Source: Paludibacteraceae bacterium (GTDB lineage: Bacteria > Bacteroidota > Bacteroidia > Bacteroidales > Paludibacteraceae). From it: a stretch of DNA of 32,104 nt. This document shows, in pieces, positions 12,625 through 32,083 of the stretch (positions are counted from its first letter, which is position 1; each line of letters opens with the position of its first letter). The notes beneath the pieces are model-generated. The model ran no database searches, was not told the DNA's origin, and saw only the letters and a program-made list of their open reading frames with translations. The translations under genes were made by a program, and so were the position numbers. The stretch covers positions 1 through 32,104 of the forward strand of contig JAFUEI010000015.1 in the NCBI GenBank assembly GCA_017464025.1, given 5' to 3'.

Positions 12625-12632
12625 TGCATAAA

Positions 12633-12779: not shown

Positions 12780-12816
12780 ATCAGGCCAATGATGCGCGTG
12801 TGACCTCGGAGACGGA

Positions 12817-12851
12817 GCTGTCGGGATATTATCCCGACACAATGGACGCTG
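12817..12851. repeat. 35-bp direct repeat with perfect palindrome, copy 2
   Basis: Second identical copy, 72 bp from the first. Its last bases begin a 22-bp imperfect tandem repeat (GGACGCTGGTAGTCTGA at 12844 and GGACGCTGATAGTCTGA at 12866). Confidence 0.92.
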
Positions 12852-12915
12852 GTAGTCTGATGGAAGGACGCTGATAGTCTGACGTAAGGGATGCAAGAAT
12901 AGAAGAAAGGGGCGT

Positions 12916-14274: not shown

Positions 14275-14358
14275 ATGAGAACGAGCAAAAGGATATGGGT
14301 GATAGTGCTATTGGCAATCACCGGATTGAGTTTTACAGGCGTTGAAGAAGCGTTGGCC
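14275..14358 (+). other. Signal peptide of the giant protein
   Basis: Residues 1-28: basic start (MRTSKR), hydrophobic core (IWVIVLLAITGLSF) and an ALA cleavage site before GNAYSDG. Indicates Sec export, the first step for T9SS cargo. Confidence 0.88.
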
Positions 14359-17300
14359 GGCAATGCTTATTCGGACGGTCGTGCCTATCTGCGTCAGGGT
14401 TCGCCGCAAAATGCAGGAAAGGTGTATGTCAGCACCTCTTCCTCTACTCCCGCAGCGAGTGCATATAAGACATGTAACACGGTGCAGACTTCAGAGAGTA
14501 CTACGCCGTGTGCCACGGCTCAGGTAGAGGGTGAGAATAAAAAGACCACCTATCATTTCTGGGCGCAAGCGAATACGGGCTATAAGTTCACGGGTTGGTA
14601 CACCTCTACCGGTACGCTTGCGACAACCGACGTCCACTACAGCGGAAGCGTAACCTCCGGTACGGCAGGTGGCAGCGACACGCATGCCTACTTGGACATG
14701 CACGCAAGTTTCATCAAGATTATACAGATGAGTTTCGTCCGTCCGGAGAACGGTTCGTTCACTATCAATCATAACGGTTCGGAGGTGGCTAACTATGCCT
14801 CTTTCACCTTGGACGGGACAGTGAGACTGACAGCACTTCCGGCGGACGGCTACAAGTTGCGCGGCTGGTACACCACCACCAACGGCGGCGCGACGAAGAG
14901 CTATTTTGCGTTCGGCACTACCTGCGAGCCGAACTTCACGAGCAATGTGACCATCGGTGCCGATTTCGTGCCGGACGACGGCAAGGCCACCTTCTGGAAC
15001 CAGAACACCAACAAGATTTACACAAATCTGAATACGGCGAATACTGAGGCATTGAGCGGGCACGTGATAGTTGTCGTGAGCGACGGTGTGCTGGGAGCCG
15101 GTACTTATACGATTAAATCCGGCGTGACGCTGCTCATCCCGTATAACGAGACTTATAACCTAATGACGACACCGAAGGTGCAACACTATGGATCGGCAAG
15201 TTCGGCACCGGCGCTGTCGGCCTTCCGCAAACTGACATTAGCGGCGGGAGCGGTGATCAACTGTTCGGGCAATATCTGTATCGGCGGTCAGCAGACGGCG
15301 GTGAACGGCGGTAACCCGACATCGCAGGTTTGCGGAGCAGCAGGTGTGCTGGATCTGTCGCGGGGTGGCATCATCAACATGAATAGTGGCAGTAATCTGT
15401 ATGCCTGGGGCTTCGTGAAGGGTCAGGATATGGACCAAGGCAACAACACGTCGGCATCGGGTGTAGGAGAGATTAATGCCAACAATGGTGCCACCATTTG
15501 GGAGGACTTCCAGTGCGGTGAATGGCGCGGCGGTACGGCGAGTTCAACGATATACAGCAACAAGGGGAGTTGGAAATTCTTCCCCTTCCAGAGTTATACT
15601 ATTCAGAATATAGAGGCACCTGTCAACTATGTATATGGTTCGAACCTTAAATGCCACTGGGCAGTCTTCGGCAACGGATCGACCTTTACGGTAACGTTCC
15701 CGTTAGTGGCCAGTTCAGGGTCTCTTTTCACATTGGCTTCGGGGGCTACGCTCCGGAAGTGGTATGACCCGACAACCGACCGCGTATGCTATGAGTTAGG
15801 CGGTGGTACATCCTTAGGTGCTCTGAACCTGAATGTGTTGGGCGAGAGTATATCTTCGTCGGACTACAACCTGCCGATACCGGCTAACATGCACATCATC
15901 CTGAAATCAGGCAATACACTGACTATTTCCAAACCGATGACGGCGCATGCCGGTGCAGTGGTGGAAGTGAAATCCGGTGCAACGCTGAAGATTAATGCCA
16001 AAGTGTATATGTACGATGCCGACGACTGGGACACGTACTGTATGTATGCGTATTACTACCGCACGTACAAGAACCTCACAACCCATTATGACCGCGGAAC
16101 GGGAACATCGAAAGCCAACCTTGAGGACGCAACGCTGATAGTGGACGGTACGGTGAACGTAGGTGCGCAGATGCTGTATGCCACTGCACACGGGGCGAGC
16201 ATCATAGGCAACGGCGGAGGTACGTTCATCTATAACACTCTGCCGAGCAACACCACGATGGTGCAATGTAAGGTATTGAGCGACAGGGTGAATGTGAACA
16301 TCCGCTCGGCGAACCTGAAGAATGATAATGAAAGTTTCACTAAAGGCATTGAATCCACTACTTTCAAGAATATAAACGGGCGGTGGTTCACGAATGCGGC
16401 CAGCACGATAAAGTCGAACAAGACCTACGACTTCACGTATATCAAATCGGGCGACGTATATGGCACGGGTGGCACGAACACGACGGTGTCGGCCTGCTAT
16501 TCGAAAGACAAGACAGGGCTTGCGCTGTGCGACAAATGGGCGAACGTGAAGGCTGACGCCTGCGACAACTGGTGGGTAGGAATAGATGATGGCCATCTTT
16601 ACAACTACACGCTCAACAATGCCTGGCATCAGTATATCAAGACGGGCTCCGTCACTACCGGTACGGGCGAAGACGCCGTAACGACGGACAGCTATGCCGG
16701 CTCAGATGACAAGACTTACAATAGACAGGATTGCGACATCACACAGGACGGGACGATAGACGGCAACTGTCTCTATACTATCGGCGGCGTGAAGAAAGCA
16801 TTGGTGAATGGCAGTTTCATCGCTGTGGAGAAGAACACAGCAGACGAGGCCTATCACAAGGTCGGGGCTACTACGACGTATTATATCTGTTTTGACGGCT
16901 GTGTATGGCATCCGGCAACAAAAGTGTCGGGTAAAGAAAAAGCCTATACAGTTGACGGTACAATATATATATGGTACGACGGTGCATGGCTGGCGGTTCA
17001 GAACGATGCGACGGTAGGGCTGTACTATTCGCTGAGCAGCACCAACGTGAAGATTTACTATGAGTATGCAGGCAGCGCGTGGACGCTTGCCACACCGGTG
17101 GCGGAGGTGGTGACCTCGGCGGGTACGGAGCAGGTGTATGCCCTTGCGACGGCGATAACGAAAGCGAAGGCGGGTGGGACGAACGTGACGATTCGTCTGC
17201 TGAAGAACATGACCATATCTTCCGCCTTCACCTACGACGGAGCCAACAACTGCTCTTTGGACCTAAACGGCTATACGCTCACCGGCACGATTACAAGCAT

Positions 17301-20300
17301 GATAAAAATTAACAATGCTTCTGCTACACTTATCATCAAAGACCAGAGCGGTGCAGGAACAGGTAAGGTATATGCTAACTTTTCGCGCAGCGATGATCAC
17401 ATATATGGCATCAATGTCACAAAAGGACATCTGATTATCAACAGCGGTACGGTGCATATTGAAAACACCCATGCCTCAAAGGGTGCTGTAGGCGTAATAG
17501 TATATTCAGGATATAAGTGTACCGTCAATGGCGGTATGATAGAAGTCGTATCGAAAGGTGCATCATACGGTGTATCTACTCAATCGTCAACTACTCCGGT
17601 GGTGAATATCAACGGCGGTACGATAGATGTTACCTCTACAGGAACGGTTGATAAGTTAGTGAGCGGAATCTATAGTCAGGGCGGAACAATCAATGTTAAC
17701 GGAGGTACTATTAACGCACATTCCACATCCTCGAAATACGTTTATGCTATTAATCTCACTAATGGCAATAGCACACTGACTACAACGGGCGGAACGATAA
17801 AAGCTTCAGCAGCAAGCATAGATTACGGTGTATATGTGACAGCCGGCTCAACAGCCACTATTAACGGTGGTACTATTACCGCTACCACAACATCCGGTAC
17901 ACCACGAGGCGTTATCTCATACGGAACAACGACTATCAGCGGCGGCACCATAACAGCTACTGCGGGCAGTTCGGATGCACGTGGCGTGTTTGTAGCCAAT
18001 AACGGAACCACCATCAACAACGGAGCCGTGATTACCGCCAACGCCAATTCCGATGCGCGGGCACTTTATTATGGAAACACCACACCGACGGTTACTGTCA
18101 ACGGCGGTACATTTACTGCACAAACACTCTCAACGACAGGCGCTTACGGCGTGTATGCCGAGAAAGGAACGGGAACAATCAATGACGGTACTTTCAACGT
18201 CACGGCCAAGACCAGCAATGCCTACGGCATGTATGTAACGACGACAAACACGCCGAAACTGACGGTCAACGGGGGAAAGTTCAAGGTTGCAAGTAATGCG
18301 GCTTCGCCGACAAATATCCTCTTGTGTAACAATGCTGCCGCAACGGCGGACTTCATTATCAACGGCGGGTATTATAATCTGGCGAAGAATGAGAATGTTA
18401 CTACAGGTACGGAAGACGGTTATACGACATATCCCAACTTGAGTATAGCCAAATACAAGGCATCGGGCAAACTTGTAAAGGAACTGGATGCGACAGTCGA
18501 GGCGAGCCTCAAAACAGAAGGCTACGGATGCAAGGTGGCAGGAAAGGAATATATCGTTACGTGGTGCAAGATGGGAGGCAACACAGGTAGCAACATCCTG
18601 AAAACTGAAAAATGGGAAAGCGGTAAGGTGCCTGTATGGACAGGCCCCGATCCTGACTTGAACTCGACAGGCGTAACACGTGTGTTTGCCGGCTGGAATA
18701 CCGGAACATGGAATGGGGGAACCGCATATCCTCTCGGAACACCATTGCCTGCAATTACAGATCACGATGTTACCTACTATGCGATTAACAGGCCCATTTA
18801 TGCCGAGGTGATAGCAGGCGGAAAAACCACTCCATATACTGATATTAACACGGCTTTCAATGCCGCTATGGCTTATACCAATGCTACCATTCGCGTTAGA
18901 ACCCAATTAGGCACAGAGGCAAGTATAAGCAATGGCAGACAGTTGGTATTCAACCCTGAAAATGCCAACTCTATCATTACCCTCGACCTCAACGGACTGT
19001 CGTGGACGATGGGTAACAACGCTGATGCCACACTAAATAAGAACATCTACCTTAGTGTCGCTCCGACAAAAGCCAATTGCAAACTCATCATTACCGACAA
19101 CTCGGCATCCGGCAACGGCTACCTGATGAACAAGCATGCTTATAACGGAACTCTGTATTGTGTTGATGTGGCTAATGGAGGCGAACTGATACTGCAAGGC
19201 GGCGGACTGAGGGCAAGCAACACATCTGATGTCTCGGCGGCAAAATATGGTGCAGCTGTGAATGTGGCAAACGGCGGCAAGTTCACTATGACCGGCGGTA
19301 CGGTTTATTCCACCGATGCTTACTCGCCACGAGGTGTCAATGTGTCGGTTGGTGGTACGGCTGATATAGCAGGCGGCACCATTGAAGCGGTCTCAACAGG
19401 AGGTAATGCGTATGGTCTTCTTCCTTACGGAACAGTGTCTGTGGGCGGTACGGCTCATATCAAGGCAACTGCAGCCACCTCTTTGGCATACGCTACCCAA
19501 ACGCAGGGAACACTGACCGTCAATGGCGGTACTTTTGAAGCAAAAGCCGCAAGCGGCACAAGAGGTTTGTTTGCGCATGCAGGTGGAAAAATAACTGTAG
19601 ATGGCAATCCGATAGTAAAGACGGAAGTTACTTCCGGCAGCGAGGCCTACGCGGCTTACTCCAATGGTGCCAATAGCGAATTGGTAATCAACGGCGGTTC
19701 ATTTACTTCTACCGGTATCTCAACATCCGGTTCGATAATGGGTGTTCGTGCTGTATCCGATGGTGTGGTAACTGTCAATGACGGTACCTTCACGCTTAAC
19801 GGAGGTAACAACTGGACTTTCGGCGCTTTTGCCCAAAGCGGCACAATTAATCTCAATGGTGGTGAGTTTACAATCAACCAACCATCAGGTAGTAATGTGG
19901 AGGCTGTCCGTGTTTATCCGACCGGAGTATGTAATATCTCCGGCGGTACTTATACGGTAACGCGAGATGGTGCAGGCAACGCGCTATGTTCGATGGGAGG
20001 TACTACCAACATTACGGGGAATCCGGTATTTAATGCATACTATGGTATCAATGTCGGAGGAGCAGTTGTCGCAGCCGGCGATCTTACCGCTACGGTTGTG
20101 GTTGACGGCGGAACATATAACACCCAGAGCTGGGGAGTACAATCTATCATAACCAGCAGGAATGAAGCTACGTTAACAGGCTCTATTACCGGAGATGTAA
20201 CGATATGGGATGGTAAATTTAAAGCACAAAAGACCGGTTATTTTGTTTTAGGTAATACTTCGCCTACAGAGTGTCTGAAGATCCGCGGTGGTTGGTACTC

Positions 20301-23300
20301 TAACAATTCGAATGGCAAACTTGCCACAGGTAGCGGTAATTATGTTGTTTCGCCGAGTACGGTTCAAACACTCACTTCCGGTGCGGAATTTGATGCCGGT
20401 TACAAATATCATGTACTTGCCAAATACAACGTTACCTTCTTGGTCAACGGCAGCAGTACTGTCACGCAGTACAACCGCAACGAGACGCCGGACTTTGGTT
20501 CGACGCCTGCTATCAACGACGGCAACACATGGGAGTTTGTAGGCTGGAGTCCGGAGATAGCGCCCGTAACGACGGATGTAACCTATACCGCTGTGTTCAA
20601 GAAATATGAGGCGGAGATTATACGGTTAGGGGCATCATCGGGAAAGAAATACGAGCACTTCACTGACGCATGGACCGATGCTTTGAAGCTTGAAAACTGC
20701 ACCATACGCATATTGAGTAATACCGATGTGGCAACACAGTTGCAATATAACCCCGCCCCTCCGGCCGGCACGACCGAAACGGACGAAGAGTATTTCACGA
20801 ATGCCACGACCACGCTTGACCTGAACAATCACACACTGGCCTATACAGGTACGGCTGACAGGTTCCTCATTGTCAACAAGGCAGGCTCTGTATTGACCGT
20901 TACGGACAATTCAACCGCTAAGGGCGGCAAATTGGATTTTACAAAATCATACAACGGGAATCTGCTTTGTACAGTAGTACAGAATGGCGAACTTGTACTT
21001 GAAGGCGGACAAATATCTGCACAGAACACATACGATGGTAAGGCTTCCCGTGCCGTTATGCCATTGGCAAATGCTGTATTCACCGTAAACGGCGGTAAGG
21101 TACAGGCTAAGGCCAAAACAGATGCGCGCGCAATCAATAATGACGGCAATGCCACTGTCAATATCACCGGCGGTACCATCTATGCAAGTACGGAATATGC
21201 AACAGACACATGGGGAGCGAGTGCTTTCGGTGTCGTCATGTGGAACACGGGAACCACCAACATCAGCGGTAATCCGACCATTACAGTAGAGGCTGCAAGC
21301 AGTGCCACCGGCGTTTACGCATACGGTACAACCGGCAAAATCAATATAGATGGCGGTACGATAAATGCGACAACCAAAACAGCAGGTTCAGCGAGGTGTG
21401 TTCAGTCTGCAAACAATGGTACAGTTGTCATTAACGATGGTACATTCACTGCGCGTACTGCGACTACGGCGGCATTCGGAGCATACGCGGATACTAACGG
21501 CAAAATGACAATTAATGGTGGTGTATTCGATGCTCAAAACGCACTTGGTAATACATCAGAAATTTGGAATATAGAAGGTTTGCGTGTTGCAGCAGGAGCA
21601 AATGTGACTGTCAACGGCGGTACATTCACCGCTTCCAAAGGTGCAAGTCCTATGGCAGTAGGTGTTCGCGGTGGTACGACAACTATCAACGGCGGTACAT
21701 TCAACTCAACGCGAGGTCTGTATGCAATGGGTTATGCCGATGCAACACAAACAGCGACCGTAACCATCAACGGCGGTACCTTCATCGGTACGGCAGAAGC
21801 AGTCAGAGTGGAATCTATGTCACGTGATGTTAAGGATGGCGATGGCAATATAACGGCAACTTATAAAGCATATTCCAATGTTACCGTCAACGGTGGTTAC
21901 TTCTATTCAACGGGTTCATCAATCATTTCTCTAAATCAAAAAAGCGGAGTAACCAACTCAACGCTGGTGCTGAACGGCGGAAAGTATTGCGAGAAATCGG
22001 GAACTACCTATAGGGATCAGATTAAGGCGCGCAAAGGTGCGACCACAAGTGATCCTATTGCTATCAACGAGACGGTTGAAGGCAGGAAATATGTTTATGA
22101 ACTACGGACACCGTTCACCGTAACGTGGAAGGGAGGCACGAGTTACACCCAGACGGAGACGGTGCAGTCGGGTACGACACCGACAAACAACGAATGTACT
22201 TCGTTTGTCAAGTCTGACGGCAAGACCTATTACTTCACCGGCTGGACGCCGACTCCGGCACCTGTGTATGGCGACGTGACCTACGAGGCCGAAGGCGCAT
22301 ACTACGAAGCGGAAGTGAAGATAGGCAACGGCGGATGGACCAAATATGCCGACTTCAACGAGGCATGGGAAGCCGTGCAGAACTCAAGCAATGCGACCAC
22401 GCAGATAAAGCTGCTCAACAATGTGGAGCTTGCCGACAAGATTCTCTACAAGCCTACTGTCGCCAAAGCACGCACAACATTCGACCTCAATAACTTCACC
22501 TTGTCGATCGGCGGAACGGCAGACCGTCTGATGGAGTTCAACAAGACGGATGCCATCCTCACCATCACCGACGGCTCGGAGGCGAAGGGCGGAACGCTGT
22601 CTATAACACGCACCTCTGCTGCCTCCATTTACACGGTGGTAGTAAGTAGCGGCGAGCTGAAGATGACAGGCGGACGCATCTATGCGCAGAACGACCAGAA
22701 CGATGCTAACTGGCACCCTGCCATAGCGGTATATGTAGCAGGCAGCGACAATGCCAAACTGACTATGACCGGCGGAACGGTAGAGTCAAATGCTAAGTAT
22801 CTTGCTTATGGAGTACAGTCATACGGTATCACCAACATCACCGGCGGCACGATAAAAGCCACCTCACCCGGATTGAACAATGGCAGTAGCGCCTACGCCG
22901 TAGGTCTATATAGCGTGCAGCGCACAACTACTTTCGGCGGCACTGCCAAGATAGAAGTATCAGGTCTGAAAACCAGCTATGGCGTTATGGCTAACGGCTG
23001 GATTAGCAACGACGGGAAAACCATATACAACAGCACTCTCAACATCACCGGCGGTACGATAGATGTGACGGCTACGAATAGTAATGCTGTTGGCATACAA
23101 GTCAACGCCACATCCAAATTAGTGAGTGAGACTTACTATGGCGCACACGGCGTTATCAACGTGAGCGGCGGTACGATTAATGTGAAATGTTCTGCTTCAT
23201 CGGCAACACAGGTGTTTGGAGCACAAGTATCGGCATCTCGGCAATTTGACGAAGCAACGCCCCATAATATGCTGTTGGATGAGAAAGGTGAACTGAATAT

Positions 23301-26300
23301 ATCAGGTGGTACATTCACAGTGGATACGCGCAATAACGGTGCATGGGTTAGTAACGGCGGCAATGTGGACATGCTGCGCAGTTGGGGTACGCTCAATGTG
23401 ACAGGCGGTAATTTCACCATCTATCAGAATTCAGCTCCTGTAGGTGTGAGTTGCTATCGCAACAAAGCGACGGTCAGCGGCAATCCGGTATTTAATATCT
23501 ATGGTAATGACAGGGCGTATGGCGTAGAGGCTGGTCCGTGGAACAGCGAGGGCTATTGCGATGCCGATGCCGCAAATAACCTTGCTGAGATAGAGGTGAA
23601 CGGCGGTACATTCAATGTAAATGCAAAAAGCGGTCTTACGATAGGCGCATGGGCATACGGCGGTATCTCCGCCAATAACGCCACAACCGGTACCGGTGCC
23701 GGCTATGCGATGAATGCGAAGGTAACAGTCAACGGAGGCGAGTTTATCTGCTACAATCCGACGGCTAATAATTCGCGTATCTTCCGTCAGGAAAACACAC
23801 GTACAGGGACCTACGGAACAGCCACGGCTGAACTCATCGTTAACGGCGGTAAGTTCAAACCATTGGCAGGTGCTGCTGAGCCTTACACTTCAACCGGCAC
23901 TCATAATGTCACATTACCGGACAACAACGACAAGCACACCCTACTGACGGGCGGTTATTATGTTACCAACACAGAGTTAGCTACCCATGTGGCAGACACA
24001 TGCGTTGTCCGCGCTCTGACCGAGGCTGACGCTGAATATGCCGATGGTTATCGCTATGCTATCGGTGTCAACTATGTAGCCCAAGTGAAAGTGGGAAGCA
24101 CGGTGAAGAAATACACCCTTATGAAAAATGCGTTCGACTATTTTGCTACTGTCAACAACGCTACCCTCACCGTCTTGGACGACTGCAACTTCGACATGGG
24201 AGATAAATTCTATAATTTCATCCCTGCAATGGCTAACTGGGTAGGTAAGCTCGACTTGAACAATCATAAGATAACAGGTATTACGACTACCGACCGCTTC
24301 TTCAATTGCAATTCCGGCAATGTAAAGACCTTTACCATTACCGACTCTTCCGCAGAGAAAGGCGGTGAGTTCTATTACGAGTCCGCATACTCAGCAGGTA
24401 CCACTTACGGTTTCTTGTTCTATAAAGGAACCTACAACCTCAATGCAGGCACGCTGCACCTGAAAAAGACTGTAGCACAAGGTGCTCTTGCAGTACGCAT
24501 TGGTGATGGTTCGTATGATGCTGCTACGCCGTTCAATATGACGGGCGGAAAGATTATCTGCGAAGGCGGATCGAGCGTTACTGGTATTGCTAATTATGGT
24601 AGCGTCAACATCTCCGGCGGAGAGGTGAACATAACTTCCACTGCTTCTACTTGGCTTAACGCAATAACCAACTATGCTCATAATTCGAAGGCATCGGAAC
24701 TGACCATCAGCGGTGCTTCAACGAAGATTATCGCTAAAGCAGCTTCAGGAGCGCAAGCTATTAATATGAGCGGTTTGAATACCACCACTATCTCCGGTGG
24801 TACGATTTCGGCTACCGTTTCCGACAAAACTGCACGCGGCATATTAGCAACTGCCGGTACAGCTACTATCTCCGGCTCACCGGAATTCACTGTAACTGCT
24901 ACAACTTCAGGTGCAAGCGGTATTCTTATTAACGGTTCTGCAACGATAGACATCAGCGGAACGCCTGAGTTTAAAGTTACTGCGGGGACAAGCGCATACG
25001 GTATCAAGTCCGAGGCAACGAGTACCACCACCATTGCAGGCGGCACATTCAATGTAACCACTTCGGGCACAGGTAGCTGGGGCTTACATGTCCAGAACGA
25101 AACAAATGCCAGTGTGATTAATGTGACCGGCGGCACATTCAATGTTCAAACCACTACGCCGGCAACCTCGCAAACATGGTATAACATTGAGGGTATGCGT
25201 ATCTATAGCGGAGCAAGCAGTGTGATGAATATCTCCGGCGGAACATTCAATGTGACCAACAACTGCAAGGGTACATCGGCGGCAACAGGAGTGCGCACAT
25301 TTGACGGGACAGTGAACCTGTCCGGCACGGTAACCATCAACGCGAACCAATGTTTCCGCATCTCTGATACATATATTTCCAACACGACGGCTTATGTCAA
25401 TGTCTCCGGCGGTACGTTCAACAGCAATTCGTTAGGCATTTATACGAATGAGAAGACAAGCGGCGAGAACAAGAACTCATCCAGCTTCACTATTACCGGA
25501 GGTAAGTTCAAGTCGGCCACAGCCAACCATATTGACACCTCCTCGCCTGCTTCGCTGCTGCATATCCAAGGCGGCTTCTTCAACGAGCGCTCCGGCACCA
25601 ACTCGAAGACCAATCTGGAAAAATATGTCTCCGACCCCTATGAGGTATTCACTCTTGAAGACGGCGATGCCAACAAAGCAGCAGGCTATGCCTACGAGGT
25701 ATGCGAGAAACGCGTGGCAAAAGTGAAGACAGGCTCTACCACAACCTACTACACCACTGTTCTTGCTGCAATGAATTACGCAAGAACAGTTGCCAACCCG
25801 ACGATAACTATTCTGCACGACTGCACCCTGACGGCAAGATGGAATCTTAGCAGTGCTATCGACAATTGGCAAGGCATACTTGACCTTAACGGCAAGACCG
25901 TGACAGGAACAGGAACCACCTATGGTGTGATAGATGTAACCAAAGCCGGTACAAAACTTACTATTCGCGATAGTTCGGCAGGGCAAACAGGTAAACTGAC
26001 TCATGAGGAAGCAAATAATGCTCACTGGGGTGTTAATGTCAATAATAATGCGGAATTAGTGCTTGAGTCAGGTACTATATATGTAAAGAACACGAAAAGC
26101 GATGCCACCAGTAATACTGTAGGCGTTTGTATCAATAGTGCCGGTGGTAAGTTCACCATGAGCGGCGGTAAGATAGAAGTACATAGTGCTCTGAGTGCTC
26201 TTGGTTTATATTTATTCGGTTCGGGTACAACCAACATCACCGGCGGTAAGATTAAGGCGGCAACCGACCTCAACCCTGAAAGCCTTGGCAATACCGCAAG

Positions 26301-29300
26301 AGGTATCTTGCATGCTGTTGCACACACTTTGACAATCAGCACTACTGATTCCATAATCGCTACGGCAAATAGCGATGCTGTGGGTTACTATCTGAATGTA
26401 GCTTCACAGACACTGACTATTGGTGGCACAACGAAGATTTCTGCTAACGCGGCAAACACTGCCTACGGTGTTCGTCTTGAAAAAGCAAGTACAATTAATA
26501 TTGGGGGAAATGTAGTTATTGATGCTACCGCAAAAGCAGAAACGTCTTATGCCGCTTATCAAACATCAGGAACCATCACTATTAGCGAGTCAGCGACACT
26601 TACAGCAAAAGCTGACCACAATGCTTATGGTGTTTATGCCACAGGCTCAGCTTCGACGGCTAATGTGTCCGGCGGTACGATAACCGCTCATGTGGTAACT
26701 GAAGGTGCTTCCCTTGGCGTATATGCAGTCTCTTCCGCCAAAGCGAATATCACAGGCGGTACTATCTATGGCAAGTCCGATAAGGCTTCGGCATCTAATG
26801 TATCACCTGTTCGCACCGGTCAGAATGCAACGATGACCATTGACGGTGGTATATTTGATGGCACCGGCTTCCAAGCCGTAAGTATCCGTGGCGGTACAAC
26901 AACCATCAATGGCGGTACATTTACTGCCAAAGAGGGTATCCGTGCAATGGACTGGGCAGATGCAAATGGAATAAAGGGCACTCTCAATATTAACGGAGGC
27001 GAGTTCAATGCAACATCTGTGGCACTCCATATTTCGTCAAAGTCCAATAGCGATCCTGTTCGTACCGGTTCTGCCAAGGTAACAGTAAATGGCGGCAAGT
27101 TCAAGAGTACCGGCACAAATATGATTCAGTTTGATGCCACTCCTTCGGGTGCAGCCGCGTCATCGCTTCAAATCACCGGCGGTTACTACAACGAACGTTC
27201 CGGCACCACCTTCAAAGACCAAATTCAGACCTACTGCGTAGCACCTAAACATGCCATTGAACTGACCGCAGCAGAAAAAACCGCTATCGGCTCTGACTAT
27301 AGCTACAAAGTTGTTGATGCCTACACACTCACATGGGATGTCAACGGCGGTAACGCACTGACGGGTACATATACAAGCGGAATACTCGAAGTGGGTGCAC
27401 CAATCACCAAACCTGCAGACCCGACGCGCGAGGGCTATACCTTCAACGGTTGGGACACAACACCGGCAACAGTCATGCCGGCCGCCAACACAACCTATAC
27501 GGCACAATGGTCGTTGAATGTGGCAGAAGTAACCATCAACGGCACTTCAACTATTTATACTACCCTTGCAGCTGCCTTTGCTGCGGCTAATGCTTCTAAA
27601 ACATACGAGCCTACAATAAAGATTCTGCAAGATATCTCAGATATAACAACAGCCATCAGCTACACAGGTACCAAGAATTGTACGCTCAACCTGAACGGAC
27701 ATACTGTGGCAGGAACTGTTACAAAGATGTTGACTATAAATACTGCCGCTAAATTTACAATTGACGACAGCACTGCCGACAAACTCGGTAAAATATCTTT
27801 GACTGCAAATATAAATGATCGTGCGTATGGTCTGTATATAACCAAGGGTGAAGTGAACCTAAAAGCAGGTACTATATATAGCAAGAACACGCATACATAT
27901 TCTGATGCCGCAGAAAACGAAAATTCAGCTGCTACTGCCGTCTTTGTGACCAAAAGTCAGAAGTTTATTATGGATGGAGGAATAGTGGAAAGTGAATCGC
28001 AACATGGGTCGTATGCTATATATGCTTCTCAGACAGGTACTACAACGATAACTATCAATGACGGACTTGTTAAAGGACATACTAATTCTTCAACAACAGC
28101 AGCAGGTATATACACCTATGCCGGTGGTTTGACCGTTAACGGCGGAACCATCATAGGACATGCTTGGACTTCAACAGCTTATGGCGTGTATGTACGCGGT
28201 GCCGCTACTTTGAATGGTGGAACAATAGAAGCAACAAACGACACTATTAGCAGCAAAGGCTCGACTACTACCATTGGTATATATGCAAGAGGTACGATAA
28301 CCATTCCTTCTACATCCACAGTAAATGTTTTAGCCAAATCGCGCACAAATAAATCTTATGCTGTTTATGCGTACAGCGGTTCTACAGGACACACCATTGC
28401 CGGCGGAACCTTTACTGCAATTTCAAAAACAGGAAATACAGCATACGGTATTATATCTACCGGAGACATTACCGTTTCAGGAGGTACATTTAATGTATCT
28501 GCGGCTACAACCACTTCTACTATCACTACCGTGCCTGCCGGCATCTATGCAACAAGAGGAACAGTTACTGTCAACGGTAATCCTACATTCAAGGTTACTT
28601 CCGGCGCTGCACGAGCATACGGAGTATTTGCTTACGGAACAATAGGAGACACCGGAACCGACAAGTATTCCGGAACAATCAATATCAATGGTGGTACATT
28701 CAATGTTACATCCACTACCACTACTGCATACGGTGCATACGCAGGATTAATCACTAAGACTGTCGAAGAGGCTGAAGGTAATACTGCCGGAACGCACTAT
28801 ATGCCGGGTATCATTTCTATAACCGATGGTACATTCAATGTAAAGGCAACGACAACGAAAGCCTACGGCATTGTTGTTGCAGCCGCTCAATCAGAATCAG
28901 GGGCAGTAGGTACAACTACTAAATATCCTACTGCAACTATCACCGGCGGTAATTTCAAGGTAGAAAGCGGAAACGATGCTAATGCTACAGCATACGCTAT
29001 GAACAATGACGCAACTGCTGAGTATCTGATAGTTCAAGGCGGTAAATACAGCACAAAAGCAATAAGTGCCACTGTAAATATCGAAGGCAAATACACCGCT
29101 CCGAAAAAGTCGTGCAACTACTATGTATTCCCCCTCATCGGCGAAACCCCGTATAACTACGAAGTAGCGGAGGGTGCTGTGGTTACTTGGAACGCAACGC
29201 AGAACGGCGGAACGACAGGGGCAACAACAACGGTTGTGAAGAAAGGCACGGCTCTCTCGACGCAGTTGGCATCTATGCCGGAGGCTACAAGAGCGGGTTA

Positions 29301-31422
29301 TACCTTCAAAGGCTGGTACACGGAAGCCACGGGCGGCACGGCCGTAACCACCGCAACGACCGTCTCTGAAAGCACGACGTACTATGCGCAGTTCGGTGTG
29401 AACAGCTACAAGATCACATGGAAGGATGAAGACGGCACTGTTCTCAAGGAAGAAGATGTCGATTACGGCGAGACTCCTGCTTACGGCGAGACACCGACCA
29501 AGGCCGACAGCGAAGACGAGAGTTACAGCTTTGCCGGTTGGTCGCCGGCCATAGCGGCCGTAACCGGCGAGCAGACCTACACCTCCACCTACACCGGTAG
29601 CGAGCGTGCGGACTATAACGATGCTGACGGGACTCTTGACTTTGTGGACTGGGCCCTTGGATCGGGCAAATTGGCCTCATTCACGCTCAACATGAACGGC
29701 TACGTTGCTTCCACGCCGGGGACGAACTGGAAAGTGCAGGTAACGGGTATTGACAAAGCCTATCTGTCAGGCGACCGTGCGTCCGACCGCACGATGGAGG
29801 TGGATGTGGCATCACTGAACCTTGCCGCCGGCAGTCAGTTCGTCGTAAAAGCCTACTGCGGGGACAAGTGTGACAGCCGTCAGCACATAACGGTGCCGTA
29901 TATATATAGTGCAGCCACCACACTCTCCAGTCAGGGAAGTATAGCCCCGACAGCGATGCTGTACGTGAAGAGCGGCACGCTGACGGTGAACGGCAATATA
30001 GAGGTGAAAGACGTGGTAGTGAATGCGGGAGCGGAGCTCGTCATCAAGAGCGGGAAGACGCTGACGGTGACGGGTAGAATCGTGCTCCGCACCGAGGCGT
30101 GGCGCTCGGCCGTGCTGACGAACAACGGCACTCTCAGTTTCGGTTCGCTTGCGACGGGTAAGATGTACTACAGCCGTATTATGCGTGACAAGTCGGAGAC
30201 GTGGCAGATAGGCTTCCCGTTTGATGCGGATGTGGATGTGAGCAAAACCAACACGCTCTTCTCCAACGGCAAGTCGGCGCGGTTGGGCACGCACTTCGGC
30301 CTGATGTACTATGATGCGCAGTCACGTGCCGAAAACGGGAAGGGAGCGAACTGGATCGGCTGCAATCCGGCCACGTTCAAGACGATAAAGGGCAAGACGG
30401 GTTATCAGATCGTTTCCACGTCGGCCTACTATATGGAGTTCTTGTTCCCTGTGAGCTACAGCAAGGTGGCTGACGGCGCCACCATTGCCGTCACGGCCTA
30501 CAGCGGCAGTGCGGCCCCGATAGACCAAGGCTGGAACTACCTCGTCTCGCCCTACACGGGCCGCTTCACGTGCGAGGGTGATCCTTCGGAGCGCATCAAG
30601 CTCTGCGAGCTGTATGACGACAACAAGAACTTCCACCAGTTTGTGCCGGAGCAGATACTGCCTGCCATGCCGTTCTACTATCAGGCGACCGAGACAGGCA
30701 AGCTGACGTTCTCGAGCGACATCGCCTTCTCGAAGGCTCCGGGCCGCGATGCGGCGGCAAGGACGCAGTGGCTGCAGGTGCTGTATGGCGACAGCCGGTA
30801 TGTAGAGGACGAGGCCACGATATTCCTGCATCCGGAGAAGTTCAGCGACGGCATGGACAGCCGCTACGAGACGGGCAAGCTGTCCACCTCGGGGACGCGT
30901 CCGTTCGTGTGGAGCACGCTGCCTTACGGCGATATGGCCATCGCCGCCCTCACCGACAGCATGGCCGAGAGGCGCATCCCGCTCACGGTGTATGCTCCCG
31001 CGGCCGGTGAGATGTACTTCTCGCTGCGGGCGAACGACTGGCAGGACCGTCTGGAGGCGCTCTATCTGTACGACGAGCAGACAGGCAGCGTTGTTGACCT
31101 GTTGTGGGCCGACTACACCTACGACGCCGCGGCGGGCACCGTGCGTGACCGCTTCTTCCTGCAGCCGGTGTTCAGCAGCCGGAAGGTGACGACCGGTATG
31201 GCCGAGGACGGCAGCGCAGAGAGCACGCTGAGCATCTGGCGGTCGGGCAAGACGCTGTGGGTAGCGGCCGAGCCGGGCGCAGAGGTATATTGTTTTGACG
31301 CGGTAGGGCGCCTTATCGGCAAGGGCGTGGCGGCCGCCGAAAGGTTGCACTTTGAGGTGCCGGCAGACGGCGTATATCTGATACAGGCCGGAACAGAGGT
31401 AAGGAGAGTGATGATAAAATAG
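14275..31422 (+). CDS. Giant secreted beta-solenoid surface protein (5,715 aa) with InlB-type repeats and T9SS-like tail
   Basis: An open frame of 17.1 kb with no internal stop. Residues 1-28 are a signal peptide with cleavage after ALA. Two divergent InlB B-repeats (Listeria-Bacteroides type) lie at about 70-145 and 152-232, each with the F-x-GWY core. An N-terminal beta-helix-like region follows (about 240-720), then a linker with YDG/W-rich segments. Seven large modules begin near residues 943, 1510, 2113, 2679, 3269, 3815 and 4417. Each has a head (AEV...Y..., TLDLNG, LTITDxS), a ladder of NGGT-type rungs about 25 residues apart and a closing GGYYNERSGT-like segment. InlB-type linkers lie at four of six junctions, and two more follow the last module (about 4968-5110). 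Residues 5112-5650 are a beta-rich C-terminal region, and 5650-5715 resemble a T9SS type-A sorting domain. I infer a cell-surface or released adhesin or matrix protein; no enzymatic motif is seen. Probably cotranscribed with 31430. Confidence 0.9.
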   Translation: MRTSKRIWVIVLLAITGLSFTGVEEALAGNAYSDGRAYLRQGSPQNAGKVYVSTSSSTPAASAYKTCNTVQTSESTTPCATAQVEGENKKTTYHFWAQANTGYKFTGWYTSTGTLATTDVHYSGSVTSGTAGGSDTHAYLDMHASFIKIIQMSFVRPENGSFTINHNGSEVANYASFTLDGTVRLTALPADGYKLRGWYTTTNGGATKSYFAFGTTCEPNFTSNVTIGADFVPDDGKATFWNQNTNKIYTNLNTANTEALSGHVIVVVSDGVLGAGTYTIKSGVTLLIPYNETYNLMTTPKVQHYGSASSAPALSAFRKLTLAAGAVINCSGNICIGGQQTAVNGGNPTSQVCGAAGVLDLSRGGIINMNSGSNLYAWGFVKGQDMDQGNNTSASGVGEINANNGATIWEDFQCGEWRGGTASSTIYSNKGSWKFFPFQSYTIQNIEAPVNYVYGSNLKCHWAVFGNGSTFTVTFPLVASSGSLFTLASGATLRKWYDPTTDRVCYELGGGTSLGALNLNVLGESISSSDYNLPIPANMHIILKSGNTLTISKPMTAHAGAVVEVKSGATLKINAKVYMYDADDWDTYCMYAYYYRTYKNLTTHYDRGTGTSKANLEDATLIVDGTVNVGAQMLYATAHGASIIGNGGGTFIYNTLPSNTTMVQCKVLSDRVNVNIRSANLKNDNESFTKGIESTTFKNINGRWFTNAASTIKSNKTYDFTYIKSGDVYGTGGTNTTVSACYSKDKTGLALCDKWANVKADACDNWWVGIDDGHLYNYTLNNAWHQYIKTGSVTTGTGEDAVTTDSYAGSDDKTYNRQDCDITQDGTIDGNCLYTIGGVKKALVNGSFIAVEKNTADEAYHKVGATTTYYICFDGCVWHPATKVSGKEKAYTVDGTIYIWYDGAWLAVQNDATVGLYYSLSSTNVKIYYEYAGSAWTLATPVAEVVTSAGTEQVYALATAITKAKAGGTNVTIRLLKNMTISSAFTYDGANNCSLDLNGYTLTGTITSMIKINNASATLIIKDQSGAGTGKVYANFSRSDDHIYGINVTKGHLIINSGTVHIENTHASKGAVGVIVYSGYKCTVNGGMIEVVSKGASYGVSTQSSTTPVVNINGGTIDVTSTGTVDKLVSGIYSQGGTINVNGGTINAHSTSSKYVYAINLTNGNSTLTTTGGTIKASAASIDYGVYVTAGSTATINGGTITATTTSGTPRGVISYGTTTISGGTITATAGSSDARGVFVANNGTTINNGAVITANANSDARALYYGNTTPTVTVNGGTFTAQTLSTTGAYGVYAEKGTGTINDGTFNVTAKTSNAYGMYVTTTNTPKLTVNGGKFKVASNAASPTNILLCNNAAATADFIINGGYYNLAKNENVTTGTEDGYTTYPNLSIAKYKASGKLVKELDATVEASLKTEGYGCKVAGKEYIVTWCKMGGNTGSNILKTEKWESGKVPVWTGPDPDLNSTGVTRVFAGWNTGTWNGGTAYPLGTPLPAITDHDVTYYAINRPIYAEVIAGGKTTPYTDINTAFNAAMAYTNATIRVRTQLGTEASISNGRQLVFNPENANSIITLDLNGLSWTMGNNADATLNKNIYLSVAPTKANCKLIITDNSASGNGYLMNKHAYNGTLYCVDVANGGELILQGGGLRASNTSDVSAAKYGAAVNVANGGKFTMTGGTVYSTDAYSPRGVNVSVGGTADIAGGTIEAVSTGGNAYGLLPYGTVSVGGTAHIKATAATSLAYATQTQGTLTVNGGTFEAKAASGTRGLFAHAGGKITVDGNPIVKTEVTSGSEAYAAYSNGANSELVINGGSFTSTGISTSGSIMGVRAVSDGVVTVNDGTFTLNGGNNWTFGAFAQSGTINLNGGEFTINQPSGSNVEAVRVYPTGVCNISGGTYTVTRDGAGNALCSMGGTTNITGNPVFNAYYGINVGGAVVAAGDLTATVVVDGGTYNTQSWGVQSIITSRNEATLTGSITGDVTIWDGKFKAQKTGYFVLGNTSPTECLKIRGGWYSNNSNGKLATGSGNYVVSPSTVQTLTSGAEFDAGYKYHVLAKYNVTFLVNGSSTVTQYNRNETPDFGSTPAINDGNTWEFVGWSPEIAPVTTDVTYTAVFKKYEAEIIRLGASSGKKYEHFTDAWTDALKLENCTIRILSNTDVATQLQYNPAPPAGTTETDEEYFTNATTTLDLNNHTLAYTGTADRFLIVNKAGSVLTVTDNSTAKGGKLDFTKSYNGNLLCTVVQNGELVLEGGQISAQNTYDGKASRAVMPLANAVFTVNGGKVQAKAKTDARAINNDGNATVNITGGTIYASTEYATDTWGASAFGVVMWNTGTTNISGNPTITVEAASSATGVYAYGTTGKINIDGGTINATTKTAGSARCVQSANNGTVVINDGTFTARTATTAAFGAYADTNGKMTINGGVFDAQNALGNTSEIWNIEGLRVAAGANVTVNGGTFTASKGASPMAVGVRGGTTTINGGTFNSTRGLYAMGYADATQTATVTINGGTFIGTAEAVRVESMSRDVKDGDGNITATYKAYSNVTVNGGYFYSTGSSIISLNQKSGVTNSTLVLNGGKYCEKSGTTYRDQIKARKGATTSDPIAINETVEGRKYVYELRTPFTVTWKGGTSYTQTETVQSGTTPTNNECTSFVKSDGKTYYFTGWTPTPAPVYGDVTYEAEGAYYEAEVKIGNGGWTKYADFNEAWEAVQNSSNATTQIKLLNNVELADKILYKPTVAKARTTFDLNNFTLSIGGTADRLMEFNKTDAILTITDGSEAKGGTLSITRTSAASIYTVVVSSGELKMTGGRIYAQNDQNDANWHPAIAVYVAGSDNAKLTMTGGTVESNAKYLAYGVQSYGITNITGGTIKATSPGLNNGSSAYAVGLYSVQRTTTFGGTAKIEVSGLKTSYGVMANGWISNDGKTIYNSTLNITGGTIDVTATNSNAVGIQVNATSKLVSETYYGAHGVINVSGGTINVKCSASSATQVFGAQVSASRQFDEATPHNMLLDEKGELNISGGTFTVDTRNNGAWVSNGGNVDMLRSWGTLNVTGGNFTIYQNSAPVGVSCYRNKATVSGNPVFNIYGNDRAYGVEAGPWNSEGYCDADAANNLAEIEVNGGTFNVNAKSGLTIGAWAYGGISANNATTGTGAGYAMNAKVTVNGGEFICYNPTANNSRIFRQENTRTGTYGTATAELIVNGGKFKPLAGAAEPYTSTGTHNVTLPDNNDKHTLLTGGYYVTNTELATHVADTCVVRALTEADAEYADGYRYAIGVNYVAQVKVGSTVKKYTLMKNAFDYFATVNNATLTVLDDCNFDMGDKFYNFIPAMANWVGKLDLNNHKITGITTTDRFFNCNSGNVKTFTITDSSAEKGGEFYYESAYSAGTTYGFLFYKGTYNLNAGTLHLKKTVAQGALAVRIGDGSYDAATPFNMTGGKIICEGGSSVTGIANYGSVNISGGEVNITSTASTWLNAITNYAHNSKASELTISGASTKIIAKAASGAQAINMSGLNTTTISGGTISATVSDKTARGILATAGTATISGSPEFTVTATTSGASGILINGSATIDISGTPEFKVTAGTSAYGIKSEATSTTTIAGGTFNVTTSGTGSWGLHVQNETNASVINVTGGTFNVQTTTPATSQTWYNIEGMRIYSGASSVMNISGGTFNVTNNCKGTSAATGVRTFDGTVNLSGTVTINANQCFRISDTYISNTTAYVNVSGGTFNSNSLGIYTNEKTSGENKNSSSFTITGGKFKSATANHIDTSSPASLLHIQGGFFNERSGTNSKTNLEKYVSDPYEVFTLEDGDANKAAGYAYEVCEKRVAKVKTGSTTTYYTTVLAAMNYARTVANPTITILHDCTLTARWNLSSAIDNWQGILDLNGKTVTGTGTTYGVIDVTKAGTKLTIRDSSAGQTGKLTHEEANNAHWGVNVNNNAELVLESGTIYVKNTKSDATSNTVGVCINSAGGKFTMSGGKIEVHSALSALGLYLFGSGTTNITGGKIKAATDLNPESLGNTARGILHAVAHTLTISTTDSIIATANSDAVGYYLNVASQTLTIGGTTKISANAANTAYGVRLEKASTINIGGNVVIDATAKAETSYAAYQTSGTITISESATLTAKADHNAYGVYATGSASTANVSGGTITAHVVTEGASLGVYAVSSAKANITGGTIYGKSDKASASNVSPVRTGQNATMTIDGGIFDGTGFQAVSIRGGTTTINGGTFTAKEGIRAMDWADANGIKGTLNINGGEFNATSVALHISSKSNSDPVRTGSAKVTVNGGKFKSTGTNMIQFDATPSGAAASSLQITGGYYNERSGTTFKDQIQTYCVAPKHAIELTAAEKTAIGSDYSYKVVDAYTLTWDVNGGNALTGTYTSGILEVGAPITKPADPTREGYTFNGWDTTPATVMPAANTTYTAQWSLNVAEVTINGTSTIYTTLAAAFAAANASKTYEPTIKILQDISDITTAISYTGTKNCTLNLNGHTVAGTVTKMLTINTAAKFTIDDSTADKLGKISLTANINDRAYGLYITKGEVNLKAGTIYSKNTHTYSDAAENENSAATAVFVTKSQKFIMDGGIVESESQHGSYAIYASQTGTTTITINDGLVKGHTNSSTTAAGIYTYAGGLTVNGGTIIGHAWTSTAYGVYVRGAATLNGGTIEATNDTISSKGSTTTIGIYARGTITIPSTSTVNVLAKSRTNKSYAVYAYSGSTGHTIAGGTFTAISKTGNTAYGIISTGDITVSGGTFNVSAATTTSTITTVPAGIYATRGTVTVNGNPTFKVTSGAARAYGVFAYGTIGDTGTDKYSGTININGGTFNVTSTTTTAYGAYAGLITKTVEEAEGNTAGTHYMPGIISITDGTFNVKATTTKAYGIVVAAAQSESGAVGTTTKYPTATITGGNFKVESGNDANATAYAMNNDATAEYLIVQGGKYSTKAISATVNIEGKYTAPKKSCNYYVFPLIGETPYNYEVAEGAVVTWNATQNGGTTGATTTVVKKGTALSTQLASMPEATRAGYTFKGWYTEATGGTAVTTATTVSESTTYYAQFGVNSYKITWKDEDGTVLKEEDVDYGETPAYGETPTKADSEDESYSFAGWSPAIAAVTGEQTYTSTYTGSERADYNDADGTLDFVDWALGSGKLASFTLNMNGYVASTPGTNWKVQVTGIDKAYLSGDRASDRTMEVDVASLNLAAGSQFVVKAYCGDKCDSRQHITVPYIYSAATTLSSQGSIAPTAMLYVKSGTLTVNGNIEVKDVVVNAGAELVIKSGKTLTVTGRIVLRTEAWRSAVLTNNGTLSFGSLATGKMYYSRIMRDKSETWQIGFPFDADVDVSKTNTLFSNGKSARLGTHFGLMYYDAQSRAENGKGANWIGCNPATFKTIKGKTGYQIVSTSAYYMEFLFPVSYSKVADGATIAVTAYSGSAAPIDQGWNYLVSPYTGRFTCEGDPSERIKLCELYDDNKNFHQFVPEQILPAMPFYYQATETGKLTFSSDIAFSKAPGRDAAARTQWLQVLYGDSRYVEDEATIFLHPEKFSDGMDSRYETGKLSTSGTRPFVWSTLPYGDMAIAALTDSMAERRIPLTVYAPAAGEMYFSLRANDWQDRLEALYLYDEQTGSVVDLLWADYTYDAAAGTVRDRFFLQPVFSSRKVTTGMAEDGSAESTLSIWRSGKTLWVAAEPGAEVYCFDAVGRLIGKGVAAAERLHFEVPADGVYLIQAGTEVRRVMIK
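17101..29165 (+). repeat. Seven large protein-level modules of about 546-603 residues
   Basis: Module heads start at nt 17101, 18802, 20611, 22309, 24079, 25717 and 27523, i.e. spacings of 1701, 1809, 1698, 1770, 1638 and 1806 nt. Each begins with AEV-like residues, a Tyr-Thr segment, an Ala-rich helix-like stretch, an N-x-T-I-x-x-L strand, LDLNG or LDLNN, and an LTITD-S-GG core, then solenoid rungs. The repeats are diverged at DNA level, so this is an old array rather than a recent tandem duplication. Confidence 0.85.
29176..29607 (+). other. Tandem InlB B-repeat (Flg_new) region
   Basis: Two consecutive Listeria-Bacteroides repeats (residues about 4968-5110) with the cores RAGYTFKGWYTEATGG and SYSFAGWSPAIAAVTG, each ending in a TYxAxF or TYTSTY strand. 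They separate the solenoid from the C-terminal region. Confidence 0.82.
31222..31419 (+). other. T9SS type-A-like C-terminal sorting domain
   Basis: The last 66 residues show the pattern of the Por secretion-tail family: LSIWRSGKTLWV strand, EVYCFDAVGRLI (equivalent of VYDLLGR), a VPADGVYLIQ turn (P-x-G-x-Y) and a final basic VRRVMIK. This signal directs Bacteroidota cargo through the type IX secretion system. No T9SS component gene is in the window, so activity depends on the rest of the genome. Confidence 0.78.
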
Positions 31423-31429: not shown

Positions 31430-32083
31430 ATGAGGATAAACAGCATATACAGGAAAGCAAAGGGCATGAGATACGGGCGCGGGATAGTGACGGCACTGCT
31501 GTTGGTGGCGGGTATGTCGGCGCAGGGTGTGGTGCACAGAACGAGTGACAGCGGTCCGGCCTATCATAGTCCTTACGGGGAGCAATACAGCGGTTCTTTC
31601 CTGCCGCAGGCGGGTGTGAGTCCGCAGGCGAGCGACCAACGGGGCGGGTACGGCCCGTACGGGAATGTTTATGGCGGCCGGTACGGTGCGGCAATTCCGC
31701 AGGGTCAGGCATCGGGCTCCCGCGCATACGGAACGGGCCGGCGGTACAGCGGGCCGGGGCATCTGAGCGGGAGCAGTATGGCTCATCAAGGCACCGGCGG
31801 ATATGGCGGCGTGATGCGCCGTGTGTTAGTATGGGACCCGGAGACGGAGACGTATGTGGATGACGGGACGGGGCCGGCATCGGGCAGCGGTGAGCCGACG
31901 ACGAGCGGGACGTATGTAGGAGAGACCGCGACAGGCACGGACGGCCGGCAATACAGATGGACGCTTGACGGCTGGGTGCTGAACACGACGTCGGAGGCAG
32001 ATCTGCCGTTAGGGGACGGCCTGTGGCTGCTGCTTCTGCCGGCAGGGGTGTATGCGTTTGGCCGAAGGAAGAGGATGAGGTAA
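31430..32083 (+). CDS. Small Gly/Tyr-rich secreted protein with PLGDG-TM-Arg C-terminus
   Basis: A 217-residue protein I cannot assign to a named family. The N-terminus has a signal sequence (GIVTALLLVAGMSAQG). The M at residue 13 (nt 31466) gives a more compact signal peptide and is an equally good start. Residues 40-125 are low-complexity, rich in Gly, Tyr, Ser and Gln (GGYGPYGNVYGGRYGA). A short conserved-looking part follows (RRVLVWDPETETYVDDG, then GRQYRWTLDGWVL). The C-terminus is tripartite: LPLGDG, about 14 mostly hydrophobic residues, then RRKRMR. That arrangement resembles exosortase, rhombosortase or sortase substrates. It starts 7 bp after the giant gene's stop, so it is almost certainly cotranscribed; I infer that it works with the giant protein at the cell surface. 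Confidence 0.75.
   Translation: MRINSIYRKAKGMRYGRGIVTALLLVAGMSAQGVVHRTSDSGPAYHSPYGEQYSGSFLPQAGVSPQASDQRGGYGPYGNVYGGRYGAAIPQGQASGSRAYGTGRRYSGPGHLSGSSMAHQGTGGYGGVMRRVLVWDPETETYVDDGTGPASGSGEPTTSGTYVGETATGTDGRQYRWTLDGWVLNTTSEADLPLGDGLWLLLLPAGVYAFGRRKRMR

What the first reader, a model, noticed from the sequence alone, without database searches (positions are those of the whole stretch)
14275..31422. 5,715-residue solenoid protein with a 25-residue NGGT...YGVY rung repeat
The central 4,000 residues repeat a unit of roughly 25 residues with the pattern T-[IV]-[NS]-G-G-T-[FI]-x-A, about eight variable residues, then A-Y-G-V-Y and a G-T turn. By hand I count about eleven rungs in module 1 alone. The spacing fits one turn of a right-handed beta-helix, but the double signature (NGGT and YGVY) is unusually regular. 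A fibre of this length could extend hundreds of nanometres from the cell. The repeat is seen; the fold and adhesin role are inference.
Basis: partly seen in the sequence, partly recalled or inferred. Interest (0 to 1): 0.85.

Follow-up and report, generated by a model that had tools for sequence, protein, structure and literature searches.

The report
Giant seven-rod surface protein with partner
A probably rumen-dwelling bacterium encodes a 5,715-residue protein built of seven beta-helix-like rods joined by linkers; in relatives such rods appear to be swapped between species, and the protein's tail end goes together with a small neighbouring membrane-protein gene whose role is unknown.

Summary

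(2) A close C-terminal domain is followed by a small gene ending P-x-G-x-x/hydrophobic/Lys-Arg: 13 of 13 giants with it, 0 of 30 without; the two co-diverge (r 0.85), the N-domain does not. The genome has exosortase and type IX secretion genes. Best reading: a type IX-secreted modular surface adhesin with a dedicated exosortase-type partner. Function is inferred.

The parts
14275..31422 (+). giant secreted protein, 5715 aa
   Evidence: open frame ATG to stop; dN/dS 0.05-0.28 in the segments where dS could be measured
14275..14361 (+). N-terminal signal peptide, residues 1-29 (no lipobox)
   Evidence: by eye; no signal-peptide predictor was run
14782..14970 (+). divergent InlB B-repeat-like domain (residues 170-232)
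   Evidence: Pfam Flg_new_2, 16.4 bits, below cut-off 23.6
14980..17097 (+). conserved N-domain, residues 236-941; no family found
   Evidence: alignment A6, 45-84% identity in five relatives; 37 named loci found with it
17098..18798 (+). module M0, beta-helix by family match
   Evidence: Pfam Cthe_2159 28.3 bits above cut-off 25.8; not folded
18799..20604 (+). module M1, beta-helix; end B-repeat-like by eye
20605..22302 (+). module M2
   Evidence: homology in alignment A1; not folded
22303..24072 (+). module M3: first ~190 residues confident beta, rest uneven, then low-confidence linker
24073..25710 (+). module M4, beta-helix-like
25711..27516 (+). module M5, with B-repeat at 27322-27501
   Evidence: Flg_new above cut-off; not folded
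27517..29151 (+). module M6
   Evidence: not folded
29182..29589 (+). B-repeats after M6 (residues 4970-5105)
   Evidence: Flg_new 41.4 bits over 470-539 of the last fragment; a second copy at 5043-5105 by the module profile
29602..31224 (+). C-domain, residues 5110-5650, coupled to the partner gene
   Evidence: alignment A8
31225..31419 (+). C-terminal tail resembling a type IX sorting domain (ends GVYLIQAGTEVRRVMIK)
   Evidence: homologous to the end with L047 and L050, whose tails match an own-genome type A domain profile (20.5, 12.5 bits); the window's tail itself 3.0 bits, not significant
31430..32083 (+). partner gene, 217 aa, two hydrophobic segments
   Evidence: starts 8 nt after the giant ends
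32006..32080 (+). partner's tail: PLGDGLW, hydrophobic segment, basic end
12916..14229 (+). Lnb_N (DUF4105) gene upstream, sometimes linked to giants
   Evidence: Pfam Lnb_N 26.8 bits above 22.2; NCBIfam Lnb 57.2 below 550; linkage

Best explanation
[quoted passage not shown] It is seven right-handed beta-helix rods on a string with flexible or B-repeat linkers, a conserved N-domain at the distal end and a C-domain plus sorting tail at the cell end. The rods present variable surfaces and are exchanged as blocks between species, as expected of a binding or antigenic surface. The C-domain works with a small partner encoded immediately downstream, whose C-terminal P-x-G-x-x/hydrophobic/Lys-Arg tail looks like an exosortase-type sorting signal; I propose that the partner helps to receive or hold the C-domain at the envelope. 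Shown by computation: the repeat, the predicted fold of M1 (others by homology or a weaker model), module exchange in one pair of relatives, C-domain/partner coupling, presence of T9SS and exosortase genes. Inferred: export route of this protein, orientation, adhesion, processing of the partner by exosortase, physical contact of C-domain and partner.
For: Fold. T9SS: SprA 617.6 bits, PorU-type sortase 1034.7 bits, 6 own-genome places above the Por_Secre_tail cut-off; nearest C-domain relatives carry type A-like tails. Exchange: L037 (G019) against L086 (G101) have pS 0.00-0.28 in the windows of M1-M3, while 8 of the 11 windows up to residue 1109 have pS 0.52-0.78 and PriA 0.78; dS 0.08-0.15 in M1-M3 against 0.6-1.8 in the N-part. 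Coupling: 13 of 13 giants with a close C-domain have the partner, 0 of 30 without; of the 26 strongest C-domain places in 151 genus genomes all 26 have a partner match within 0.5 kb on the same strand, 13 of them (12 genomes) not used to build the profiles; 25 of 26 strong partner matches have the C-domain upstream, the 26th begins 251 nt into its contig. Distances of C-end and partner correlate 0.849 (0 of 2000 permutations), N-domain with partner 0.11 on 10 loci. Exosortase: 56 of 61 same-genus genomes.
Against: The window's own tail does not score as a type IX domain (3.0 bits; none in Pfam and NCBIfam), and 39 of the 43 giants compared end in a different tail class. G034 (97% complete) has a strong partner but no exosortase match; so has G018 (54% complete), and G031 (76%) has a weaker partner match without one. 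Exosortase is nearly universal in the genus, so co-occurrence proves nothing. The partner tail matches no curated sorting-signal model in the 4 of 13 partners scanned. Eleven of the 13 partners were first picked by their tail, so 'all have the tail' is partly circular. Giants with only weak similarity to the C-domain (tblastn 23-25%: L043, L046, L101, L107, L108, L110, L119) count among the 30 and lack the partner; below rank 26 of the C-domain list 15 of 26 typed rows have no partner listed and 3 lie at contig edges (the listing was truncated). Co-divergence of neighbours can come from linkage alone. G019 and G101 come from neighbouring run accessions, and the L037 contig is only 18 kb, so a chimera or misbinning is not excluded. 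No binding evidence exists.
Confidence: 0.6

Rival explanations
1. A giant polysaccharide-degrading or polysaccharide-binding protein: the beta-helix rods act as pectate-lyase-like or carbohydrate-binding modules on plant fibre rather than as a spacer or adhesive fibre.
For: M0 matches the Cthe_2159 carbohydrate-binding beta-helix family above cut-off; polysaccharide lyases (6kfn, 9ozl, 7o84) are among the fold matches; 11 of the 37 named relatives are titled ruminant foregut.
Against: Six of seven modules do not match Cthe_2159; the best fold matches are autotransporter passengers, though fold alone shows no function; only 25 columns of the 853-column module alignment are invariant, 13 of them glycine, which does not look like a conserved active site.
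Confidence: 0.25
2. The downstream small protein is just the next gene in an operon that travels with the 3' end of the giant; it has no functional tie to the C-domain.
For: Physical linkage alone makes neighbouring stretches co-diverge; the partner's middle is low complexity.
Against: 13 of 13 against 0 of 30 across giants that share N-domain or modules; recovered in 13 loci not used to build the profiles; weakly similar tail proteins also follow other giants in the own genome (L053, L055).
Confidence: 0.25
3. A continuous solenoid fibre of several hundred nanometres, as first read.
For: Rungs recur in all seven modules.
Against: Own caps, B-repeats and a ~70-residue low-confidence break between M3 and M4; length arithmetic gives at most about 71 nm. 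The two-module alignment had only 3 rows, so a low-confidence junction is weak evidence on its own.
Confidence: 0.07

Closest known systems
Autotransporter and two-partner passenger beta-helices (Vag8 7akv, pertactin 1dab/2iou, UpaB 6bea, EtpA 8vbb)
   Different: no Pfam beta-barrel match in the C-terminal 1215 residues; seven modules with caps and linkers; 9-15% identity; a Bacteroidales genome with T9SS
SprB-type giant T9SS adhesins of Flavobacterium johnsoniae (passages of PMC10994853 read; gene details recalled)
   Same: very large repetitive surface protein in a T9SS organism; cargo C-domain with a dedicated partner
   Different: the known type B carriers are PorP-like outer-membrane proteins; the partner here is 217-296 aa with one or two clear hydrophobic segments and no family match; the tail is nearer type A
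PEP-CTERM/exosortase systems (passages of PMC10936215 read; PMC1569441 only its listing and the opening of its abstract)
   Same: tripartite C-terminal tail (motif, hydrophobic segment, basic end); exosortase in the genome
   Different: the motif P-x-G-x-x-[PL]-[WFY] matched no NCBIfam sorting model where scanned; tied to one class of giant cargo
Cthe_2159 (PF14262) carbohydrate-binding beta-helix
   Same: M0 matches above cut-off (28.3 bits)
   Different: the other six modules do not; cap, linkers and seven-fold array
InlB B-repeat (Flg_new PF09479, TIGR02543)
   Same: two copies above cut-off; InlB B-repeat 2y5p matched at E 4.1e-4
   Different: here only linkers between and after beta-helix modules

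Membership tests
Right-handed parallel beta-helix fold | three-strand rungs stacked in one direction with solved beta-helices as nearest folds | tested here: met
Cthe_2159 (PF14262) | Pfam gathering score | tested here: inconclusive
   1 of 7 window modules passes, 0 of 3 L037 modules tested
T9SS substrate, type A | C-terminal sorting domain | tested here: inconclusive
   window tail 3.0 bits; relatives L047 20.5, L050 12.5, own-genome giant L055 23.3 bits
T9SS substrate, type A | T9SS machinery in the same genome | tested here: met
   SprA_N 617.6 bits, T9SS_sortase 1034.7 bits; other components not searched
T9SS substrate, type A | secretion actually depends on T9SS | not testable with these tools
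   needs a mutant
SprB-type (type B CTD with PorP/SprF-like carrier) | outer-membrane beta-barrel carrier gene beside the cargo | tested here: not met
   the downstream gene encodes 217 aa with two hydrophobic segments and no Pfam or NCBIfam match at E <= 0.1; carriers elsewhere in the genome not searched
Autotransporter (type V) | C-terminal translocator beta-barrel | tested here: not met
   Pfam on residues 4501-5715 finds only Flg_new at E <= 0.1
PEP-CTERM-like exosortase substrate (partner) | tripartite tail: motif, hydrophobic stretch, basic end | tested here: met
   13 of 13 partners, 11 of them chosen by that tail; the hydrophobic stretch passes a 17-residue average of 1.4 in 8 of 13
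PEP-CTERM-like exosortase substrate (partner) | match to a curated sorting-signal model | tested here: not met
   no NCBIfam sorting model for the window's partner (E <= 0.1) nor L047, L050, L038 (E <= 1); the other 9 not scanned; L055's weak tail protein 16.1 bits to GVDTG_CTERM, below 29
PEP-CTERM-like exosortase substrate (partner) | exosortase in the genome | tested here: met
   own genome TIGR04178 67.0 bits against 23; 56 of 61 genus genomes; but G034 and G018 have a strong partner without exosortase match
PEP-CTERM-like exosortase substrate (partner) | cleavage by the exosortase | not testable with these tools
   needs a mutant and proteomics

The most novel reading that the evidence does not exclude
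A two-route display cassette: the giant leaves by type IX secretion while its small partner is sorted by an exosortase, and the two meet through the C-domain, so that exosortase processing licenses or anchors the fibre. The rod array in front of this fixed C-domain/partner base is a freely exchanged set of modules shared among rumen Bacteroidales. It would supply candidate substrates for the Bacteroidota exosortases, which PMC10936215 leaves to future work in F. johnsoniae.
Probability: 0.25. Interest if true: 0.82.

Novelty: new variant of a known kind. Interest (0 to 1): 0.62.

Why it matters
Exosortase genes are frequent in this genus (56 of 61 genomes), yet PMC10936215 (passages read) leaves the substrates of the F. 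johnsoniae exosortase to future work, although xrtF and T9SS genes were both found needed for surface colonisation there. Here a genus pairs a giant C-domain with one small tail-signal protein, which gives named gene pairs to test. The module exchange suggests that these bacteria trade ready-made surface rods across species, which would bear on how they compete for plant fibre or escape phages and protozoa. In the eight searches of open-access PMC papers that I made I saw no title or abstract opening that describes this protein class or the pairing; none of the searches was aimed at module exchange.

Tried and rejected
Plasmid collection, megablast of the whole gene: no match. Viral contigs with M1: no pattern match. 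PDB by sequence: for residues 4876-5715 only internalin B; for M1 two ribosomal L6 chains at E about 0.9; for M0 one chain at E 0.44; A1 profile 0 of 177635. Modules across the phylum: 1 of 395 genomes (own only; in the rows shown at most 3 candidates were scored per genome), and 28 of 101 relatives, all same genus. A weak Pfam match to a toxin B subunit (13.7 bits against 27) I take for a chance hit and dropped. A strict 25-residue period: rejected. Homogenised recent tandem duplication: rejected, since M0-M3 group with M0-M3 of L037/L086 in the tree. Positive selection: not supported, dN/dS 0.05-0.28 where dS was measurable. PriA shows that the window (53-54% identical) is distant from G019, but the window-G019 N-domain pS (0.48-0.76) is too high to prove recent transfer of the window's own copy, so I claim exchange only for the G019/G101 modules; many other pairs of loci share 80-97% identical stretches that I did not separate from plain relatedness. 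The regular expression used first missed two partners (L089, L090: PIGTTPW, PLGATPW), found by eye, and gave two hits that I judge false (L106, L109; 94-95 aa ORFs 578-585 nt away, not found by the profile). The Fisher value (1.4e-8) was for 11 of 13 against 0 of 30; the loci are related and not independent. In control ORFs of 300-899 aa, 5 of 317 had a tail-like ORF downstream.

Full report
What is there. The window is the whole of contig C59 in a 2.11 Mb, 71-contig, 89% complete genome. The giant ORF is complete. It reads signal peptide (by eye), a divergent B-repeat-like stretch, a conserved N-domain (residues 236-941), seven modules M0-M6 (942-4959), B-repeats, a C-domain (5110-5650) and a tail. 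The other six modules are 28-35% identical to M1, at 545-602 aa, with 25 invariant columns, 13 of them glycine.

Repeat statistics. Motif counts exceed all 500 shuffles. The iterated profile, fitted on the sequence itself, gives 72 sites against 2.0 per shuffle at its threshold; positions -1 to +3 read N-G-G-T-[FI]; commonest spacings are 28, 29, 26 and 27. An A-[YRFVT]-G-[VILMA] element follows within 26 residues 17 times, 9 of them at 12 residues after the first G; it is much looser.

Distribution. The module profile matches 28 of 101 relatives, all of the same genus and none of 40 other genera, and 1 of 395 phylum-wide, the own genome, with shallow scoring. N-domain relatives: 37 loci, all titled Bacteroidales or Paludibacteraceae; 11 titles name a ruminant foregut (goat reticulum, sheep omasum, yak, dairy cattle, roe deer), and the RUG names of many others I recall as rumen genomes. 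The window's own source is not told. Rung number varies between relatives: in L048 six short modules keep the cap and the last ~130 profile positions but skip the middle.

Module history. In an IQ-TREE of 19 modules, window M1, M2 and M3 each group with M1, M2 and M3 of L037 and L086 at 100 support; the M0s group, with window M6 beside them; M4 and M5 do not pair one-to-one; deeper forks are weak. Between L037 (G019) and L086 (G101) the protein is a mosaic. Up to residue 1109, 8 of 11 windows have pS 0.52-0.78, the others 0.38, 0.17 and 0.36; the M0 rungs fall to 38-52% amino-acid identity; from about residue 1428 to 3729 identity is 85-100% with pS 0.00-0.47, three 100-codon windows at 0.00; then 61 to 38% again. 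PriA between the same genomes is 61% identical with pS 0.78. The breakpoints lie near module ends. I read this as block exchange of rods between species. Caveats: the two MAGs come from neighbouring run accessions (SRR11784280 and 281; L092 equals L037), and the L037 contig is only 18 kb, so chimera or misbinning is possible, though the uneven divergence inside the block argues against a simple chimera and the contrast inside the gene does not depend on binning.

Partner gene. Starting 8 nt after the giant's stop lies a 217-aa ORF ending PLGDGLWLLLLPAGVYAFGRRKRMR. Among 43 giants with a stop codon and at least 500 nt downstream (two of them the pieces of the broken L046 gene), all 13 that match the C-domain by phmmer have such a gene next (11 by regular expression, L089 and L090 by eye), and none of the 30 others do after discarding two hits that I judge false; some of the 30 show weak C-domain similarity by tblastn. 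A profile of the 13 run over 73 loci (1.17 Mb) returns the 13 themselves and two weak ones, L053 and L055, which also follow giants in the own genome. In 151 genus genomes the partner profile matches 99 and the C-domain profile 114; some weaker partner matches also lie behind weaker C-domain matches (for example G185:C60, G142:C52, G035:C22). Ranking C-domain places, the top 26 all have a partner match within 0.5 kb downstream, 13 of them (12 genomes) in loci not used for the profiles; of 52 typed rows 34 have one, 3 are at contig edges, 15 have none listed (five partner rows were added by hand). Distances of the last 620 residues and of the partner correlate 0.849 (0 of 2000 permutations); on the 10 loci with N-domain, N against C is 0.19, N against partner 0.11 and C against partner 0.89. 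So C-domain and partner behave as one unit while the N-domain is shuffled against it; linkage alone could also produce this.

Sorting systems. SprA and the PorU-type sortase are present, and six own-genome places pass the Por_Secre_tail cut-off, not including the window's tail. One exosortase-family gene is present (TIGR04178 67.0 bits; C55), nearest NCBIfam subtype XrtX at 99.7 against a cut-off of 170. Its sequence shows WSCTALKQ, NILRITLIA and an HAYVFKYLFYG stretch, which I take from recall to be the exosortase Cys-Arg-His pattern. 56 of 61 genus genomes have one; G034 (97% complete) and G018 (54%), both with a strong partner, show none.

Literature seen. PMC10936215: passages; xrtF, its neighbour and T9SS genes came out of a surface-colonisation screen in F. 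johnsoniae, substrates left to future work. PMC10994853: passages; type A and type B sorting domains and their carriers. All other papers: search listings and abstract openings only. SprB size and SprF details are recalled.

Verdict. The repeat is a beta-helix, as read, but arranged as seven capped modules; nothing about the fold is new. The points of interest are the apparent exchange of whole rods between species and the tight C-domain/partner pairing with an exosortase-like tail.

Noticed in passing
window 12916-14229: Lnb_N (DUF4105) gene ends 45 nt before the giant; a homologue lies within about 1.3 kb upstream of giants also in L037, L039, L045, L047, L087, L103, L120 and L121, farther off in L114. 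Why a lipoprotein N-acyltransferase-like gene should sit there is unexplained.
   Followed up: partly
window 10866-12371: Sugar-binding periplasmic domain (Peripla_BP_4) fused to an AraC-type HTH: perhaps a one-component membrane sensor that regulates the locus.
   Followed up: partly
L046 4828-9963 and 9960-14813: The giant of G031 is split into two overlapping open frames; assembly error or real frameshift unknown. Described only, not mended.
   Followed up: no
L038 16343-18181, L042 17556-19391, and downstream of the giants in L043 and L049: A further secreted-looking protein of 611-621 aa follows the partner or the giant; similar starts follow the partner in L089, L090, L097 and L111. Maybe a third member of the cassette.
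   Followed up: no
C-termini of most relatives (e.g. L042, L043, L048): 39 of 43 giants compared end in a different tail class, often K-V-L-I-[ND]...[YF]-I-[LI]-R-G...Y...G-[KQ], that does not match the type A profile used here: perhaps a separate sorting signal.
   Followed up: partly
L050 17730-18440 and 18466-19185: Two tail-type genes in a row behind one giant.
   Followed up: no
window 10001-14000: GC skew rises to 0.23-0.33 over the sensor and Lnb_N genes and falls to 0.07 in the next 1 kb, where the giant begins.
   Followed up: no
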